A stretch of DNA of 33,457 nucleotides from Bacteroidales bacterium (GTDB taxonomy: Bacteria > Bacteroidota > Bacteroidia > Bacteroidales > UBA932): the NCBI GenBank assembly GCA_017454335.1, contig JAFTDE010000002.1, positions 1 to 33,457 on the forward strand. The letters run 5' to 3'. The notes under the pieces were generated by a model. That model worked only from the letters and a program-made list of their open reading frames with translations. It was not told where the DNA came from and did no database searches. Shown here piece by piece: positions 26,124 to 33,457 of this stretch. Position 1 is the first letter of the stretch. Each line of letters starts with the position of its first letter. A program made the translations under genes and the position numbers.

Positions 26124-27074
26124 TTAATCCATTGATTGTTCCGTATTCACCGCCATGAAGAGCATGTTGGAATACTCTTCGGGCGAGACGGCCCCGAACA
26201 GGTAATTGATCGGGTCCATGTATTCGTCGTTCCGCAGCACCTCGTAGTGCAGGTGCGGGGCGTAGGAACTGCCGCTCATGCCCACCGAACCGATCCGCGC
26301 GCCCTTCCGGACCTTCTGCCCCTCTTTCACGGCAATGTCGGACAGGTGCGCATAGCGGGTCTTGTATCCGCCCGCATGCGTCAGTTCGATCAGGTTCCCC
26401 TGGCCCCGGGACGAGCGCGTCACCTTCGAGACGGTCCCGTCGGCCGTGGCCAGCACGGACGCCTCCTGGGGGGCGATCAGGTCCAGCCCGTTGTGCTGGA
26501 CATAGGCCTTATAGAAGGGATTGATCTTCTGGCCCCGGGTCGCGCCCACCTGCGGGTAGGAGATATCCTCCAGCGGCAGGGCCATCGGCGGCATGACCGC
26601 GGAGTCCCCGGCGGCCGCCAGGAAGATCTTCCGGAAAGCCTCGTCCACCCGGGCGGAGCGCTCCGTCAGCTGGATGGACTTGTCCCGCGTGTATCCGAGC
26701 AGTTCCGCGTCGGGCAGGGTATCGCTGGCGAAGAGGAAATCCAGCGAACCGATCGGATCGACATTCGGGGCGTCGGTATGGAAAATCTGCCTGTAGATCT
26801 CGTCGTCCTTGACCTGCAGGCCGGTGATGCCGTCCCGGATCAGCTGTTCCTTGGGCTCCAGCAGCGGATAGGTCTTCTCGTACATCCGGATTTCCCGGCG
26901 CAGCCTGCGTTCGGTCTCGGTGCTGAGGAACAGGGACAGCACGAAGTAGATGGCGACGGTCAGGGACACCGTCGTCAGCAGGAACAGCAGCAGCCGCCTG
27001 ACAAGGCGCCAGATCCGCAGGGGGGCCTGCTTGAAACTGAAACTGCCCCGGTCGAACACATACTTCGGACTCAT
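26124..27074 (-). CDS. M23-family membrane-anchored peptidase (second of tandem pair)
   Basis: A 316-residue LytM-type endopeptidase with an N-terminal cytoplasmic stretch, one membrane helix (about 28-50) and a helical segment before the catalytic domain. The zinc residues are His194 and Asp198 (HNGLD), and His243 (YAHL) and His276 (HLHYEV) complete the site. M23 enzymes cut peptide cross-bridges in peptidoglycan. The segment before the first ligand diverges from the usual FGxRxDP-type sequence that the upstream paralogue retains. Its start overlaps the upstream paralogue as ATGA (27071-27074). Confidence 0.88.
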   Translation of the reverse strand: MSPKYVFDRGSFSFKQAPLRIWRLVRRLLLFLLTTVSLTVAIYFVLSLFLSTETERRLRREIRMYEKTYPLLEPKEQLIRDGITGLQVKDDEIYRQIFHTDAPNVDPIGSLDFLFASDTLPDAELLGYTRDKSIQLTERSARVDEAFRKIFLAAAGDSAVMPPMALPLEDISYPQVGATRGQKINPFYKAYVQHNGLDLIAPQEASVLATADGTVSKVTRSSRGQGNLIELTHAGGYKTRYAHLSDIAVKEGQKVRKGARIGSVGMSGSSYAPHLHYEVLRNDEYMDPINYLFGAVSPEEYSNMLFMAVNTEQSMD

Positions 27075-28108
27075 TGCCCCACCGTGCGCCTCCTCCGCAG
27101 GATTTCGCCGGTCGTGGTACGTTTGCCCGCCTCGGTTTCCGCTTCGCGTTTCTCCACCATGGCCTGGTACTCCTCCCGGGAAATCGACATGTCCATATAG
27201 TTGTACGGATTGATCGCGGCGCCGCGAAGCAGCACTTCGTAGTGCAGGTGCGGGCCCGTCGCCTTGCCGGACTTGCCGACCGTCCCGATCAGGTCGCCGC
27301 GATGGACCTGCGTCCCCACCCCGACTTCGATCGTGTTCAGGTGCGCGTAGCGGGTCTCATAGCCGAATCCATGGTTGATGATCAGCTCGTTGCCATATCC
27401 GGTGAACTGGTATTTCGCGCTGGTGACCACCCCGTCGCCGGTCGCATACACCGGGATGCCGATGATGCCGGAGGTCGAGAAGTCCTGGCCCGAATGGAAG
27501 CGGGTACCGCCGTAGACGGGGTCCGTCCGGTATCCGAAGGGGCTGGACAGCTGGACCCTGCCGGGATCGGGGCACAGCGGCGGGACGGCCGGGATGCAGG
27601 CGATCATGTCGCCCGCCTCGCGCGAGACCGTGCCGACTTCGTCCAGGGCCCGGCTCTGCAGGTACACCCGCTTGGTCAGCACGTCCATCCGCCGGATGGT
27701 GCTCTTCAGGTTGGCGTTGGCGCCGAAATCGTCCAGGTAGGCGTAGCGGTTCACCCCGCCGAAGCCCGCCTGCTTGACATTTTCGGGAATGGGATCCAGG
27801 CCGAAGATCGAACGGTACACGTCGTCGTCCCGGTCCTCGATGCCGCCGAGGGTCTCTTCGTACAGGTCCAGCTGGCGGTTCATGACCTCCATCCGGGATT
27901 CCCACTCGGCATGGACCTTCCGCAGGTGTGCCGTCTTCGGCAGTTCCAGCCCCAGCACCGAGGTGTACATCCAGAAATAGAACCAGACCAGACCTAGGCC
28001 CAGCAGCGTCAGAACGGCATACAGCAGGATCCGGAGGGACCTGGGTTCCTCCTTGATTTCGTACATCAGGGTCTCCGGATTGACGATATATTTGCCGAAT
28101 CGTGCCAT
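27071..28108 (-). CDS. M23-family membrane-anchored peptidase (first of tandem pair)
   Basis: A 345-residue LytM-type peptidase. After a cytoplasmic N-terminus (MARFGKYIVNPETL) come one membrane helix (about 27-47) and a coiled-coil segment (about 60-95). The catalytic domain has SPFGYRTDPVYGG, HSGQD (His205, Asp209), YAHL (His256) and HLHYEV (His289). The set is complete, so it is probably active on peptidoglycan cross-links. A good Bacteroidota promoter precedes it, making it the likely first gene of the long minus-strand run. Confidence 0.9.
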   Translation of the reverse strand: MARFGKYIVNPETLMYEIKEEPRSLRILLYAVLTLLGLGLVWFYFWMYTSVLGLELPKTAHLRKVHAEWESRMEVMNRQLDLYEETLGGIEDRDDDVYRSIFGLDPIPENVKQAGFGGVNRYAYLDDFGANANLKSTIRRMDVLTKRVYLQSRALDEVGTVSREAGDMIACIPAVPPLCPDPGRVQLSSPFGYRTDPVYGGTRFHSGQDFSTSGIIGIPVYATGDGVVTSAKYQFTGYGNELIINHGFGYETRYAHLNTIEVGVGTQVHRGDLIGTVGKSGKATGPHLHYEVLLRGAAINPYNYMDMSISREEYQAMVEKREAETEAGKRTTTGEILRRRRTVGQ

Positions 28109-28162: not shown

Positions 28163-28804
28163 TCAGGAGAGGATGACCAGCACCGGGGCCTCATGGGACA
28201 GGGCCAGGGTGATCACGTCGCGGTCCGCCCGGTTGAGCGATGCCTTCCACCAATTGTCCAGGCAGACTCCGTCCGTGGGCCAGTGCAGGCCTTCGGAGCG
28301 GATCTGCAGCGTCGGATCGGCCGTGAACAGCGATACGCTCCGGCCCTGGCCGACATGCAGGGTCGCATCGGACGAGACGGCGAACGCAGTCGTGTAATCC
28401 GACACCATTTCGACCCGGATGCCGCGCGACGAGAGGCGGAAACGCCGCTCGTACTCCATCAGCAGGGAATAATTCGCCAGGGTGTGGTCCTCGCGCCGGC
28501 CCGAAGCGCCCAGGATGGTGATGCGTTCCGCGTCCGGCCAGCGTTCCATCACGAAGGTGAAGGCCTTGGTCAGGTCGTTGGTTTCCTGCTCGGCCACGCG
28601 GACCTTTTCGCCGTGGAAACGGCCCAGGGCCCGGCTGCAGACCGAATCCATGTCCCCGATCACCAGCTCCGGGACGATGCCGTGCCGCTCCAGCGTCCCC
28701 AGCGCGCCGTCACAGCAGACCAGGTGGTCCGCACTGCGCAGCAGGTAGCGGGGGTATTCCGTCCGCGGAAAGGATCCCGCGGCGACGATGACGACGGTAC
28801 TCAT
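28163..28804 (-). CDS. Thiamine pyrophosphokinase
   Basis: A 213-residue enzyme that transfers pyrophosphate from ATP to thiamine, giving thiamine diphosphate. Recognisable blocks are CCDGA (30-34), GDMDS (50-54, GDFDS-like), ETNDLTKAF (74-82) with Asp77 and Lys80, and GASGRREDHTLAN (99-111). The C-terminal half holds the beta-rich thiamine-binding domain, with SEGLHWP as a conserved turn. Its start overlaps the stop of the upstream lptG-fmt fusion as ATGA (28801-28804). No thiamine riboswitch is seen before it. Confidence 0.93.
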   Translation of the reverse strand: MSTVVIVAAGSFPRTEYPRYLLRSADHLVCCDGALGTLERHGIVPELVIGDMDSVCSRALGRFHGEKVRVAEQETNDLTKAFTFVMERWPDAERITILGASGRREDHTLANYSLLMEYERRFRLSSRGIRVEMVSDYTTAFAVSSDATLHVGQGRSVSLFTADPTLQIRSEGLHWPTDGVCLDNWWKASLNRADRDVITLALSHEAPVLVILS

Positions 28805-31251
28805 AGGCGGGATTTGGCGATTTCCGCCCTGGACGTGCCCGGGGTGCAGACATAGGACTGCGGATCACGGAATCCCAGCAGGAATTCGTGCACCGCCATG
28901 CGTTTCTTGCCGGACAGCTGGACCTCCAGCAGGGACAGGGCGCCGTCCGCGGTGGCGACGGCCAGATAGGACTTGCCGTCGGAAAGGACCGTTCCGGGAG
29001 CCGCACTGACTCCTTCCATCACCTCGGCGCGGAAGACCTTCAGGGCGAGCGGCTTCACTTCCTCTCCCTCCGCCGGGACGGCGGGGACCAGTTCGGTGAA
29101 GGCCGCGGGATAGGGACTGAGGCCGCGGATGAGGTTGTACACGGCCGTCGTGGCGTCGTTCCAGTCGATGTGGCACAGCTCGCGCGTCAGTTTCGGCGCC
29201 TTGCGCAGCACCTCGTCGCCCTGGATGAACGAACGCTGGACGCGCGTCTCGACGTTGTTCTCCAGCAATCCGGCCACGGTATCGACGACCAGGGCCGCAC
29301 CCAGGGACATCAGGGCGTCATGCACGTCCCCGGCCGTATCCTTGGGACCGATGCGGTGCTCCTGGCGCAGGATGATGCCGCCCGTATCCATGTTGTGGTC
29401 GATCATGAAGGTGGTGACGCCCGTCAGGCGTTCGCCGTTGATGACGGCCCAGTTGATCGGAGCCGCGCCGCGGTACTGCGGCAGCAGGGCGGCGTGCAGG
29501 TTGAAGGTGCCCAGCTTGGGCATCGCCCAGACCTCCTCGGGCAGCATCCGGAAAGCCACGACGACGAACAGGTCCGCCTTCCAGGCCCGCAGCTGCTCCA
29601 GGAATTCGGGGTCGCGGAGCTTAAGCGGCTGCAGTACGGGGATGTCGTGCTGGACCGCATACTGCTTGACTGCGCTCTCATTCACCTTCAGGCCGCGTCC
29701 GCTGGGCTTGTCCGCCACCGTCACGACGCCGACCACCTTGTACTTGCGCTTGATCAGCCAGTCCAGCGGCATGACCGCGAACTCGGGCGTGCCCATGTAG
29801 ACGATGCGGGGTTTGTGGAAGATGGCGCGGATGCGGCTCTTGATCCTTCGCCACCAGATCTTGATGCTGTCCATGTTCACGAATTCGGCATCCAGCATCG
29901 CCCGCCGGGTCAGCACCAGGCCGATCGCAAGCAGCACGACGCAGGCAATGAACGCGCCGAACCAGGCGCTGGAAGCACCGTCGCGGGCCAGCTTGTTGCC
30001 CGAGATGTCCACCACCCAGTACAGGACGAAGAACAGCACCGAAATGATGGCGCTGATGCCCAGTCCGCCCTTCTTGATCAACACGCCCAGCGGCGCCCCG
30101 ACGAAGAAGAGGATGAAGCAGGCGAGGGCCTGCGCGAATTTCTTCCACAGCTCCACGTCCACGCGGCGGACATAGTAATACTGTTCGTACACGCGTTGGC
30201 CGAAACTGGACACGGTCGCGACGTACTGGCGCGAATGGTCCGCGGCCTGGCGGTACGCCTGGGCCTTTTCGTCCAGGTTTGCGTATTCCCCGAACCCCTC
30301 GGCGCGGAACAGTTCCGTCAGGTTGCAGTGGAGCGCGGTGTCCAGCTGGTTCCGCTGGGTCAGCTGGAAGGCATGGTGCAGGTATTCCGCCTCCTTCTGG
30401 GTTTCTTCGTTGATGATGGCGAACAGCGAATCATGCGCCCCGACCAGCTGGGCGAAGGTCTGCGATTTGGCCTGGTCGCCGAAACGGGTCGAATCGGAAC
30501 GCTCGAAGGCGTAGTGGGCCAGCTGGATGATCAGCTCCTGGCGGTGGAAGTCCACACGCTGCAGCTGGAGGGTCGTGTCGTTGTAGGACATGTTGTTGTC
30601 CTCCTGGTAGCTGGACCCGTCGAACATCGTGAAGGTCAGGTAGTCCTTGCCCTTGGACATCTTCATCAGGGCGGAATCCGCCATCATGATGGAGGTGTTG
30701 CCCTTGTTGCCGGAGTGGTCGTACACCAGCACGTTGTGCATCATGCCGGTCTGCTTGTCCTGGCTCTCCACGCGCAGGATGTAGCCCTCGATGCCGTCGT
30801 AGAAGACCCCGGAGGGGATTTTGATCTCCTGCTTGGTCCGGCTGATGTCGTCCCGGAGCGTGAAGATCTCGTTGTAAGCCTTGGGCACCAGGTTGTTGCC
30901 CACGAAATAGGCGGCGACGCTGATGAAGACGGACGCGACCATGATCGGCACCATCACCCGCGCGACGGACACGCCCGCCGAGCGGATGGCCATCAGTTCG
31001 TTGTTCTCGCCCATCTGCCCCAGGGTCATCGTGGACGCCAGGAGCGTGGCCAGCGGCAGCGAAGTGGGCAGGATCGAGCAGGCGCCCCAGAACATGAATT
31101 CCAGGATGACCCGCAGACCCAGGCCCTTGCCGACAAGATCATCGATGTACACCCACAGCAGCTGGACCGCCAACACGAACACAACCACCGCCAGGATCAG
31201 GAAAAATGGTCCCAGGAAGGATTTCAGGATGAACTTGTCGAGTCTCTTCAT
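28801..31251 (-). CDS. In-frame fusion: LptF/LptG-family permease + methionyl-tRNA formyltransferase
   Basis: One uninterrupted 816-residue frame joins two normally separate proteins. Residues 1-455 are a YjgP/YjgQ (LptF/LptG) permease, the membrane part of the ABC machine that extracts LPS from the inner membrane: three N-terminal helices (about 10-35, 52-75, 98-118), a large periplasmic beta region, and three C-terminal helices (about 373-392, 398-416, 428-447). A basic linker (about 448-481) leads to methionyl-tRNA formyltransferase (482-816), which formylates initiator Met-tRNA. It has VYMGTPEFAV, FNLHAALLPQYRGAAPINW with Asn584 and His586, and Asp622 in NMDTGG, so the catalytic triad is present. 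The permease C-terminus should face the cytoplasm, which fits an active Fmt domain. An internal ATG at 29874 (Met460) could also release separate Fmt. It starts 3 bp after alaS. Confidence 0.88.
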   Translation of the reverse strand: MKRLDKFILKSFLGPFFLILAVVVFVLAVQLLWVYIDDLVGKGLGLRVILEFMFWGACSILPTSLPLATLLASTMTLGQMGENNELMAIRSAGVSVARVMVPIMVASVFISVAAYFVGNNLVPKAYNEIFTLRDDISRTKQEIKIPSGVFYDGIEGYILRVESQDKQTGMMHNVLVYDHSGNKGNTSIMMADSALMKMSKGKDYLTFTMFDGSSYQEDNNMSYNDTTLQLQRVDFHRQELIIQLAHYAFERSDSTRFGDQAKSQTFAQLVGAHDSLFAIINEETQKEAEYLHHAFQLTQRNQLDTALHCNLTELFRAEGFGEYANLDEKAQAYRQAADHSRQYVATVSSFGQRVYEQYYYVRRVDVELWKKFAQALACFILFFVGAPLGVLIKKGGLGISAIISVLFFVLYWVVDISGNKLARDGASSAWFGAFIACVVLLAIGLVLTRRAMLDAEFVNMDSIKIWWRRIKSRIRAIFHKPRIVYMGTPEFAVMPLDWLIKRKYKVVGVVTVADKPSGRGLKVNESAVKQYAVQHDIPVLQPLKLRDPEFLEQLRAWKADLFVVVAFRMLPEEVWAMPKLGTFNLHAALLPQYRGAAPINWAVINGERLTGVTTFMIDHNMDTGGIILRQEHRIGPKDTAGDVHDALMSLGAALVVDTVAGLLENNVETRVQRSFIQGDEVLRKAPKLTRELCHIDWNDATTAVYNLIRGLSPYPAAFTELVPAVPAEGEEVKPLALKVFRAEVMEGVSAAPGTVLSDGKSYLAVATADGALSLLEVQLSGKKRMAVHEFLLGFRDPQSYVCTPGTSRAEIAKSRL

Positions 31252-31254
31252 GCG

Positions 31255-33457
31255 TCAGATCTTGGCCTTGAGGGCCTCCAGCGCCTGCTGCAGGCCGTCG
31301 GGGTTCTTGCCGCCCGCCGTCGCGAGTCCCGGCTGGCCGCCGCCACCGCCCTGGATGAAGCGGGCGGCTTCGCGGATGTCCGCGCCGGCGTTGCGGCCGG
31401 ATGCGACCAGGTCGTCGGAGTACATCAGCATCAGCTGCGGCTTGCCGTCGTGCAGGTAGGCGGCGACCAGGGCCGTCCCCTTCAGCGCTTTCTGGAGCGA
31501 CAGGGCGGCGTTGCGCAGCATGCCCGGATCGGCGTCGATGCCCAGGCTGCGGTCGAAGACGATGCACTTGACACCGTTCAGTTCCTGTGCGCTCTCGGTC
31601 AGGCGGCGGGCCAGTTCGGCGGCCCGCGCCTTGGCGAATTCCTCCGCCTGCTTCTTGAAGGAAGCGTTGTCCTCGATGAGCTTCTGGATGGCGAAATTCA
31701 GGTCCGGTGCGTTGTTGAAGAAGGCACGGGCCGTCTTCAGCACGCCCTGCAGGCCGCAAACGAAGTTCTCGGCCTCTTCGCCGGTCACGGCCTCGATGCG
31801 GCGGATGCCCGCTGCGATCGCGGACTCGCTGAGGATCTTGAAGAAACCGATCCGGCCCGTGGAGGCGGTATGGCAGCCGCCACAGAGCTCGACGCTGGGG
31901 CCGAAGCGGACCACGCGGACACGGTCGCCGTATTTCTCACCGAACAGCGCGATGGCGCCCATTTCCCGGGCTTCGTCCATCGTGGCGTCGCGGCGCTCGT
32001 CCAGCGGGAAGTTCTCGCGGATCAGGGCGTTGACGCGGCGCTCGACGGCCGCGATCTGCTCGTCGGAGAGTTTCTCAAAGTGGGAGAAGTCGAAGCGCAG
32101 GCCCTTGTCGTGGACGTACGATCCCTTCTGCTCGACATGGGTGCCGACCACCTCGCGCAGCGCCTGGTCCAGCAGGTGCGTGCAGCTGTGGTTGTTGGCG
32201 ATGCGCTGGCGGCGTGCGGCGTCCACCTCCAGGGTGAAAGGCGCCGTGCAGTCCGCAGGCAGCCGCTCGGCGATATGCACCGTCAGATTGTTCTCCTTGA
32301 CCGTATTCAGGATGGCGATGCGCTCGCCGTCTGCGCCCACGATCCAGCCGGTGTCCCCGATTTCACCGCCCATCTCGCCGTAGAACGGCGTGCGGTCGAA
32401 GACCAGCTGCAGCATCTGGCGGTTCTTCTGGACCACCGTGCGGCTCTTCAGCAGGGTGGCTCCGGGAACGGTCAGTTCGTCGTAACCGACGAAGACGGAC
32501 TCGCCCTCGGCGTACTCGGTCCAGTCACCGAACTCGTTGGCGGTGGCGTTGCGGGCCCGGTCCTTCTGCTGCTTGAGTTCCGCCTGGAAGCCGTCCTGGT
32601 CCACGGTGTAGCCATTCTCGGCCGCGATCAGTTCGGTCAGGTCGATCGGGAATCCGTAGGTGTCGTACAGCTTGAAGGCGTCGGCGCCGGCGATGACCTT
32701 GCTGTCCCGGCTGCGCGCCATGCACTCGTCCATCAGGCGGATGCCGCGGTCCAGCGTGCGCAGGAAGGCCATTTCCTCTTCACGGATGACGTTCTCGATC
32801 AGCGGCTGCTGTGCGGCGATCTCGGGATAGGCTTCGCCCATGTCCGCGACCAGCTGCGGAACCAGCCGGCACAGGAAGGGTTCGGTGAATCCGAGGAAGG
32901 TGTATCCGTAACGGACCGCCCGGCGCAGGATGCGGCGGATGACATATCCGGCCTTGACGTTCGAGGGCAGCTGGCCGTCCGCGATGGAGAAGCTGATGGC
33001 GCGGATGTGGTCCGCGATGACGCGCATCGCGACGTCCGTGCGCTCGCTCTCGCCGTAGCGGTGGCCGCTGAGTTCCCCGATCTTGCCCAGCATGCCGGTG
33101 AAGACGTCGGAGTCATAGTTGCTGTTCTTGCCCTGCAGCACGGCGCAGAGGCGCTCGAAACCCATGCCGGTGTCGATGTTCTTGGCCGGCAGCGGTTCCA
33201 GGTGGCCGTCCGCCATGCGCTGGAACTCCATGAACACGAGGTTCCAGATCTCGATCACGTGCGGGTCGGACTGGTTGACCAGGTCGCGCCCCGGGATGCC
33301 GCTCGCCTTCTTTTCCTCGGCGGAGCGGATATCGATGTGGATTTCGGAGGACGGACCGCAGGGGCCGGTGTCTCCCATTTCCCAGAAATTGTCGTGCTTG
33401 TTGCCCAGGATGATGTGGTCCTCGGGAAGATGTTTCAGCCAGGCTTCCTTCGCCTCC
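31255..33457 (-). CDS. alaS: Alanyl-tRNA synthetase (C-terminal part, 5' truncated by window)
   Basis: AlaS charges tRNA-Ala and hydrolyses mischarged Ser- or Gly-tRNA. The gene enters from the right edge in frame; 733 residues are present and roughly the first 140 are missing. Visible parts are the end of the class II core (NFWEMGDTGPCGPSSEIHID), ADHIRAISFSIADG, the tRNA-recognition helices with VIRRILRRAVRYG, and the editing domain with HSCTHLL (32170-32190) and CGGCH (31870-31884, often CGGTH elsewhere). The C-terminal oligomerisation domain with its glycine-rich GGGGGQPGLATAGG follows. It ends 3 bp before the permease-Fmt fusion, so the three genes probably form one operon. Confidence 0.97.
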   Translation of the reverse strand, partial: EAKEAWLKHLPEDHIILGNKHDNFWEMGDTGPCGPSSEIHIDIRSAEEKKASGIPGRDLVNQSDPHVIEIWNLVFMEFQRMADGHLEPLPAKNIDTGMGFERLCAVLQGKNSNYDSDVFTGMLGKIGELSGHRYGESERTDVAMRVIADHIRAISFSIADGQLPSNVKAGYVIRRILRRAVRYGYTFLGFTEPFLCRLVPQLVADMGEAYPEIAAQQPLIENVIREEEMAFLRTLDRGIRLMDECMARSRDSKVIAGADAFKLYDTYGFPIDLTELIAAENGYTVDQDGFQAELKQQKDRARNATANEFGDWTEYAEGESVFVGYDELTVPGATLLKSRTVVQKNRQMLQLVFDRTPFYGEMGGEIGDTGWIVGADGERIAILNTVKENNLTVHIAERLPADCTAPFTLEVDAARRQRIANNHSCTHLLDQALREVVGTHVEQKGSYVHDKGLRFDFSHFEKLSDEQIAAVERRVNALIRENFPLDERRDATMDEAREMGAIALFGEKYGDRVRVVRFGPSVELCGGCHTASTGRIGFFKILSESAIAAGIRRIEAVTGEEAENFVCGLQGVLKTARAFFNNAPDLNFAIQKLIEDNASFKKQAEEFAKARAAELARRLTESAQELNGVKCIVFDRSLGIDADPGMLRNAALSLQKALKGTALVAAYLHDGKPQLMLMYSDDLVASGRNAGADIREAARFIQGGGGGQPGLATAGGKNPDGLQQALEALKAKI

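What the first reader, a model, noticed from the sequence alone, without database searches (positions are those of the whole stretch)
28801..31251. LptG-type LPS permease fused in frame to methionyl-tRNA formyltransferase
The sequence shows one open frame in which a six-helix YjgP/YjgQ permease (residues 1-455) continues through a basic linker into a full Fmt domain with its Asn584/His586/Asp622 set. Both halves look intact. By established topology the permease C-terminus is cytoplasmic, so the enzyme would be tethered at the inner membrane at the LPS export complex. A link between translation initiation (alaS is 3 bp upstream) and envelope export is unusual and I know of no described system. 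Inference: either physical coupling, or a processed or dual-start gene in which Met460 (29874) also gives soluble Fmt.
Basis: partly seen in the sequence, partly recalled or inferred. Interest (0 to 1): 0.72.

Follow-up and report, generated by a model that had tools for sequence, protein, structure and literature searches.

The report
Lipid exporter fused to initiation enzyme
In one bacterial family, a membrane protein that exports outer-membrane lipid and an enzyme that prepares the tRNA that starts proteins are encoded as one long protein, and this joining appears to have happened at least three separate times.

Summary
Window 28801-31251, minus strand, is one 816-codon frame: LptF/LptG permease (7-450), a basic linker, and a complete methionyl-tRNA formyltransferase (Fmt, 482-797).

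It is not an assembly error. I read 43 distinct fused genes, this one included, in nine genera of one family. Linker codons in 15 related pairs are under purifying selection (pN/pS 0.26). One fused clade is rejected (AU p 8.6e-10; 7.5e-5 without g39); at least three changes are needed. Other genera keep two genes head to tail, often nearly touching, several with the same flanks.

No second Fmt was found in the window's genome (78.8% complete); in 6 of 22 fused genomes the fused gene is the only formyltransferase domain found. Deformylase is present in 24 of 24.

Most likely: a bifunctional protein holding Fmt at the inner membrane, arising when neighbouring genes merged. No conserved internal start was found. 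The permease scores closer to LptF than LptG. Functional coupling is possible, not shown. Eight capped paper searches listed no description.

The parts
28801..31251 (-). LptF-like permease / methionyl-tRNA formyltransferase fusion gene, 816 aa
   Evidence: same architecture in 43 distinct fused genes, this one included
29902..31233 (-). LptF/LptG permease domain (residues 7-450); 444 residues aligned to a 353-position profile, so about 90 residues are inserted
   Evidence: PF03739 1.5e-74; AF2 and Foldseek to LptB2FG chains
29809..29880 (-). linker, about residues 458-481, predicted helix 460-478; net charge +5 in the last 30 residues before the Fmt first strand
   Evidence: pN/pS 0.26 in linker codons of 15 pairs from g22, g31, g32, g33 (none from the window's genus)
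28861..29808 (-). complete methionyl-tRNA formyltransferase domain (residues 482-797)
   Evidence: TIGR00460 228.2 bits, cut-off 201.5; Foldseek best hit a Fmt crystal structure, 36% identity, TMt 0.89
31255..33456 (-). alaS, cut off by the window and contig end; its stop lies 3 nt upstream of the fusion ATG
   Evidence: alaS match upstream on the same strand in 43 of 44 fused loci
28163..28804 (-). thiN (thiamine diphosphokinase), start overlaps the fusion stop by 4 nt
   Evidence: thiN match on the same strand in 36 of 44 fused loci, flank lengths limited

Best explanation
The gene makes one bifunctional protein. The N-terminal half is an LptF-like subunit of the lipopolysaccharide exporter in the inner membrane. 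The C-terminal half is the only methionyl-tRNA formyltransferase found in the cell, hanging on the cytoplasmic side from the permease's own basic tail. It arose from gene order: neighbouring lptF and fmt (in some relatives still with ribBA between them) came to touch or overlap, and small indels or stop losses then merged the frames, at least three times in this family. Shown: the intact joined frame, its conservation, constraint across the linker, no second Fmt found, presence of deformylase, more than one origin. Inferred: loss of ribBA, the mutations that merged the frames, that the full-length protein accumulates uncut, that both halves work while joined, and that any benefit is no more than fixed 1:1 expression. 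The confidence is for the tethered bifunctional protein; the rivals on selection and cutting partly overlap it.
For: Intact domains and catalytic positions. 43 distinct fused genes in 9 genera, no stop at any junction. Linker pN/pS 0.264 (692 codons) against 0.178 for the permease and 0.184 for Fmt. Linker net charge +3 to +9 in 43 of 43. In one search the genomes with a joined match have a single match at 1e-30, except G107 (gene split over two contigs), G215 and G221 (two matches, not resolved). The fused gene is the only PF00551 hit in 6 of 22 fused genomes, five of g1 and one of g32, listed 98-100% complete. Peptide deformylase in 24 of 24. Second LptF/LptG paralog in 23 of 24. Split genera with the two genes adjacent, -16 to +27 nt from stop to Fmt match, several with the same flanks. 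ribBA (recognised by eye) between them in one locus each of g23, g24, f8 and f24 and two of f93. Tree and AU tests.
Against: No protein-level data: proteolytic release of Fmt cannot be excluded. AF2 pTM is only 0.49, so the relative placement of the halves is not resolved. Counting changes cannot tell gain from loss, and several forks are open. One locus of another family (G038) has the two genes adjacent without ribBA, so ribBA loss is not specific to this family. The Foldseek match of the permease half has high rmsd (about 6-17 A over full length). The window's genome is only 78.8% complete. One of 15 pairs (L015/L111) has linker pN/pS above 1, on very few changes.
Confidence: 0.8

Rival explanations
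1. The fusion was kept by selection because it couples initiator-tRNA formylation with LPS export, for example by local initiation at the membrane or a growth-linked signal between the two.
For: At least three changes on the tree and one clade rejected; the outgroups are split and parsimony does not require a reversal; the fused state holds across the read loci of whole genera (g1 13 of 13, g22 12 of 12, g32 8 of 8, g31 5 of 5); linker constrained.
Against: In split genera the genes already touch or nearly so, which makes repeated fusion mutationally easy without benefit. The linker varies in length and sequence. Fused genes were read in only 9 of the 25 genera sampled.
Confidence: 0.15
2. A processed precursor: the chain is translated whole, then cut in the linker, releasing soluble Fmt.
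For: Linker rich in basic residues with no fixed sequence; many g22 genes have an extra stretch such as GSTDG..LSR.
Against: No conserved cleavage motif seen by eye; linker constrained at the protein level; predicted helical.
Confidence: 0.12
3. Dual-start gene: internal initiation also makes soluble Fmt.
For: The window has Met452 and Met460; 23 of 43 fused genes have some ATG within 25 codons of the Fmt first strand.
Against: Positions scatter; 20 of 43 have no ATG and 10 of 43 no ATG, GTG or TTG there, while 29 of 34 split loci keep an ATG within 15 codons (4 of the other 5 have GTG or TTG). The longer window used for the fused set makes an ATG more likely there by chance.
Confidence: 0.07
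4. Assembly or binning artefact, or a lost stop in one draft genome.
For: Window and most relatives are draft genomes with many contigs.
Against: 43 distinct fused genes in nine genera, at about 45-65% identity to the window's, each with an open junction.
Confidence: 0.01

Closest known systems
Methionyl-tRNA formyltransferase (Fmt; TIGR00460; 1FMT/2FMT)
   Same: Both Pfam domains, catalytic positions, GRG insertion loop, fold.
   Different: Elsewhere a separate protein of about 315 aa; here the usual start codon is not kept and it is the C-terminal half of a membrane protein.
LptF/LptG permeases of LptB2FG (PF03739)
   Same: Family domain over cut-off, fold class, basic tail after the last helix.
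   Different: Below the LptF and LptG equivalog cut-offs; about 90 inserted residues; carries an enzyme on its C-terminus.
ArnA, bifunctional formyltransferase of the lipid A modification pathway (function recalled)
   Same: A formyltransferase domain inside a bifunctional envelope-pathway protein; sequence and fold similarity.
   Different: ArnA acts on a sugar nucleotide (recalled) and its formyltransferase domain is N-terminal; here the domain is Fmt and C-terminal to a permease.

Membership tests
Fmt (TIGR00460) | score over the equivalog cut-off | tested here: met
   228.2 against 201.5 bits
Fmt (TIGR00460) | catalytic Asn/His/Asp (roles recalled) | tested here: met
   N584, H586, D622 in the at-least-90% list
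Fmt (TIGR00460) | C-terminal domain and GRG-containing insertion loop (tRNA-binding roles recalled) | tested here: met
   Formyl_trans_C 76.7 bits; loop aligned to 1FMT
Fmt (TIGR00460) | formylates Met-tRNA(fMet) | not testable with these tools
   indirect: no other Fmt found in the genome, deformylase present
LptF/LptG (PF03739) | family domain over cut-off | tested here: met
   251.6 against 27.9 bits
LptF/LptG (PF03739) | fold of LptB2FG permeases | tested here: met
   Foldseek best 1.2e-11; ranks 1-29 are chains of LptB2FG-type structures (5x5y and 5l75 recalled as such), but high rmsd
LptF/LptG (PF03739) | second permease partner in the genome | tested here: met
   G000:C6, 363 aa; the gene before it looks like tgt by eye
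LptG equivalog (TIGR04408) | score over cut-off | tested here: not met
   120.2 against 240 bits
LptF equivalog (TIGR04407) | score over cut-off | tested here: not met
   150.3 against 230 bits, though better than LptG
LptB2FG exporter | LptB, LptC, LptA, LptD in the genome | not tested
   no search run

The most novel reading that the evidence does not exclude
Repeated fusion and fixation reflect selection: the LPS exporter serves as a membrane dock for initiator-tRNA formylation, so that initiation of membrane or envelope proteins, or growth-rate sensing, is physically coupled to outer-membrane supply.
Probability: 0.12. Interest if true: 0.85.

Novelty: new variant of a known kind. Interest (0 to 1): 0.5.

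Why it matters
Two housekeeping activities from unrelated processes are tied into one polypeptide, apparently several times in one bacterial family, with no second Fmt found. Fused and unfused genera with similar gene order form a natural experiment: they allow a direct test of whether tethering an enzyme to a transporter is neutral or selected, and of whether initiator-tRNA formylation can all be done from the membrane.

Tried and rejected
Looked for the fusion outside the family. The phylum scan (395 genomes) had none but the window's genome at 1e-115. A fusion reported as two pieces could escape both. G038 (another family), G218, G198, G118 and G130 looked fused by the tool's open_frame_aa column, and G085, G212, G224 and G152 were reported as one match with stops inside; the DNA shows one or more stop codons between the genes in all nine, so they are counted as split.

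Tried to name the organism: the genome-contig scan gave only one Fmt hit, in a Muribaculaceae MAG, and the kinship of that genome is not told. The taxon is not named.

Dropped before the tree: L077 (Fmt cut by contig end), L090 (N run) and loci with no fmt in the stretch fetched; 81 rows remained. They were thinned to 51 by genus, then L091 (long branch) and the duplicate L015 were left out, giving 49. L101, cut by a contig end, was kept among the 43 fused genes. Not every genome was read at the junction: of g20 8 loci and of g30 5 were read, and G215, G221 and G142 (incomplete joined matches) were not. For g36 and g40 no fmt lay in the permease stretch fetched; in G064 (g40) the two genes lie on different contigs.

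Literature: eight answered searches, listings only, several capped at 10-20 rows; no paper was opened. None of the listed titles or abstracts concerns an LptF/LptG-Fmt fusion.

Full report
OBSERVATION. The named stretch is one open frame on the minus strand, 31251 (ATG) to 28801, 816 aa. Pfam finds LptF_LptG at 7-450 and both Fmt domains at 483-657 and 687-794. The Fmt part passes the NCBIfam equivalog cut-off (228.2 against 201.5 bits). N584, H586 and D622 are in the at-least-90% conserved list over 41 rows, and the GRG-containing insertion loop aligns with E. coli Fmt. AlphaFold2 gives mean pLDDT 82 with a helix at 460-478 between the halves, but pTM 0.49, so their mutual placement is not known. 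Foldseek matches the Fmt half to Fmt crystal structures (best hit 36% identity, TMt 0.89) and the permease half, folded alone, to LptB2FG chains with high rmsd.

NOT AN ARTEFACT. In the genus, 22 of 25 genomes show the joined match; of the other three, two hold only a fragment and one has no hit beyond the paralog. In the family sample all 19 genomes of the genus are joined. I read the DNA of 44 fused loci (43 distinct genes, one of them the window's own) in nine genera: g1 13, g22 12, g32 8, g31 5, g33 2, g18 1, g19 1, g21 1, g39 1; none has a stop at the junction. In 15 related pairs from g22, g31, g32 and g33, pN/pS is 0.178 for the permease, 0.264 for the linker (692 codons) and 0.184 for Fmt. 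The pairs share members, so they are not independent; the linker bounds were set by a simple motif rule; and one pair (L015/L111) has linker pN/pS above 1 on very few changes. The junction looks translated and constrained.

ORIGIN. Of five loci read outside the family that hold both genes, four have ribBA (recognised by eye, no model run) between them (L099; L097, L098, L100, of which L097 and L100 have further genes too). The fifth, L091 of G038, has the genes adjacent, 39 nt from stop to Fmt match, without ribBA. Within the family g23 and g24 keep ribBA between (L083, L082). In the split loci of g20, g26, g27, g28, g30, g34, g35, g38, g41, one g39 and one g18 the two genes lie head to tail, -16 to +27 nt from stop to Fmt match; in g37 it is 20 and 32 nt after a longer permease. 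alaS lies upstream on the same strand in 43 of 44 fused loci and thiN downstream in 36 of 44 (flanks limited); all split loci read of g20, g26, g27 and g38 have both, while those of g30 and g41 show neither. On a careful tree of 49 rows (768 columns of the two domains, linker columns mostly left out) the fused state needs at least 3 changes (bootstrap range 3-5; one change in 0% of bootstraps). Holding all fused rows as one clade is rejected (p-AU 8.6e-10), also without g39 (7.5e-5). The clearest case is g39, where L059 is fused and its sister in the tree L088 is split. In g18, L054 is fused and L073 split, but their fork is open. Counting changes does not tell gain from loss; all outgroup rows are split.

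FUNCTION. A query with the joined protein finds in the window's genome only this gene, the permease paralog and two weak formyltransferase matches (the genome is 78.8% complete). In 6 of 22 fused genomes examined the fused gene is the only PF00551 match; the others have additional formyltransferase frames of 195-378 aa, which I did not classify. Deformylase is present in 24 of 24 genomes, and a second LptF/LptG in 23 of 24 (the exception, G099, is 80% complete). So formylation is probably in use and must come from this gene, tethered or cut. The LptF/LptG C-terminus is cytoplasmic (recalled). The last 30 residues before the Fmt first strand are net basic in 43 of 43 (+3 to +9), much like the tails of the split permeases by eye.

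INTERNAL START. Methionines in the linker are scattered. Of 43 fused genes, 20 have no ATG and 10 no ATG, GTG or TTG in the 25 codons before the Fmt first strand, whereas 29 of 34 split loci have an ATG within 15 codons. Met460 of the window is not a conserved start.

PARTNER. The permease scores 152.6 bits with the LptF model and 122.5 with LptG; the paralog (next to a gene that looks like tgt by eye) scores 173.4 with LptG and 128.5 with LptF; all are below cut-off. I therefore call it LptF-like.

VERDICT. A real, widely conserved and repeatedly evolved fusion of two housekeeping genes, most simply explained by merging of close neighbours, with the enzyme working from the membrane. Functional coupling is open. 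None of eight paper searches listed a description (listings only).

Noticed in passing
L082, L083, L084, L085, L086, L087, L094, L095, L096: In other genera of the family (g23, g24, g36, g37) and other families of the order the same permease is about 120-165 aa longer at its C-terminus (605-648 aa from the match start); no Pfam hit over cut-off in that part in the five scanned.
   Followed up: partly
window 26124-28108: Two M23 peptidases in tandem, overlapping by 4 nt, downstream of thiN on the same strand.
   Followed up: no
G062, G081, G098, G112, G217, G055: No formyltransferase domain (PF00551, E up to 0.001) besides the fused Fmt in these genomes listed 98-100% complete, so no PurN was found: perhaps another purine route or a purine need.
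   Followed up: no
L060-L067 (g20, g30) and L091 (G038): Permease and fmt lie in the same frame, separated only by one or more stop codons and a few codons: possible pre-fusion states.
   Followed up: partly
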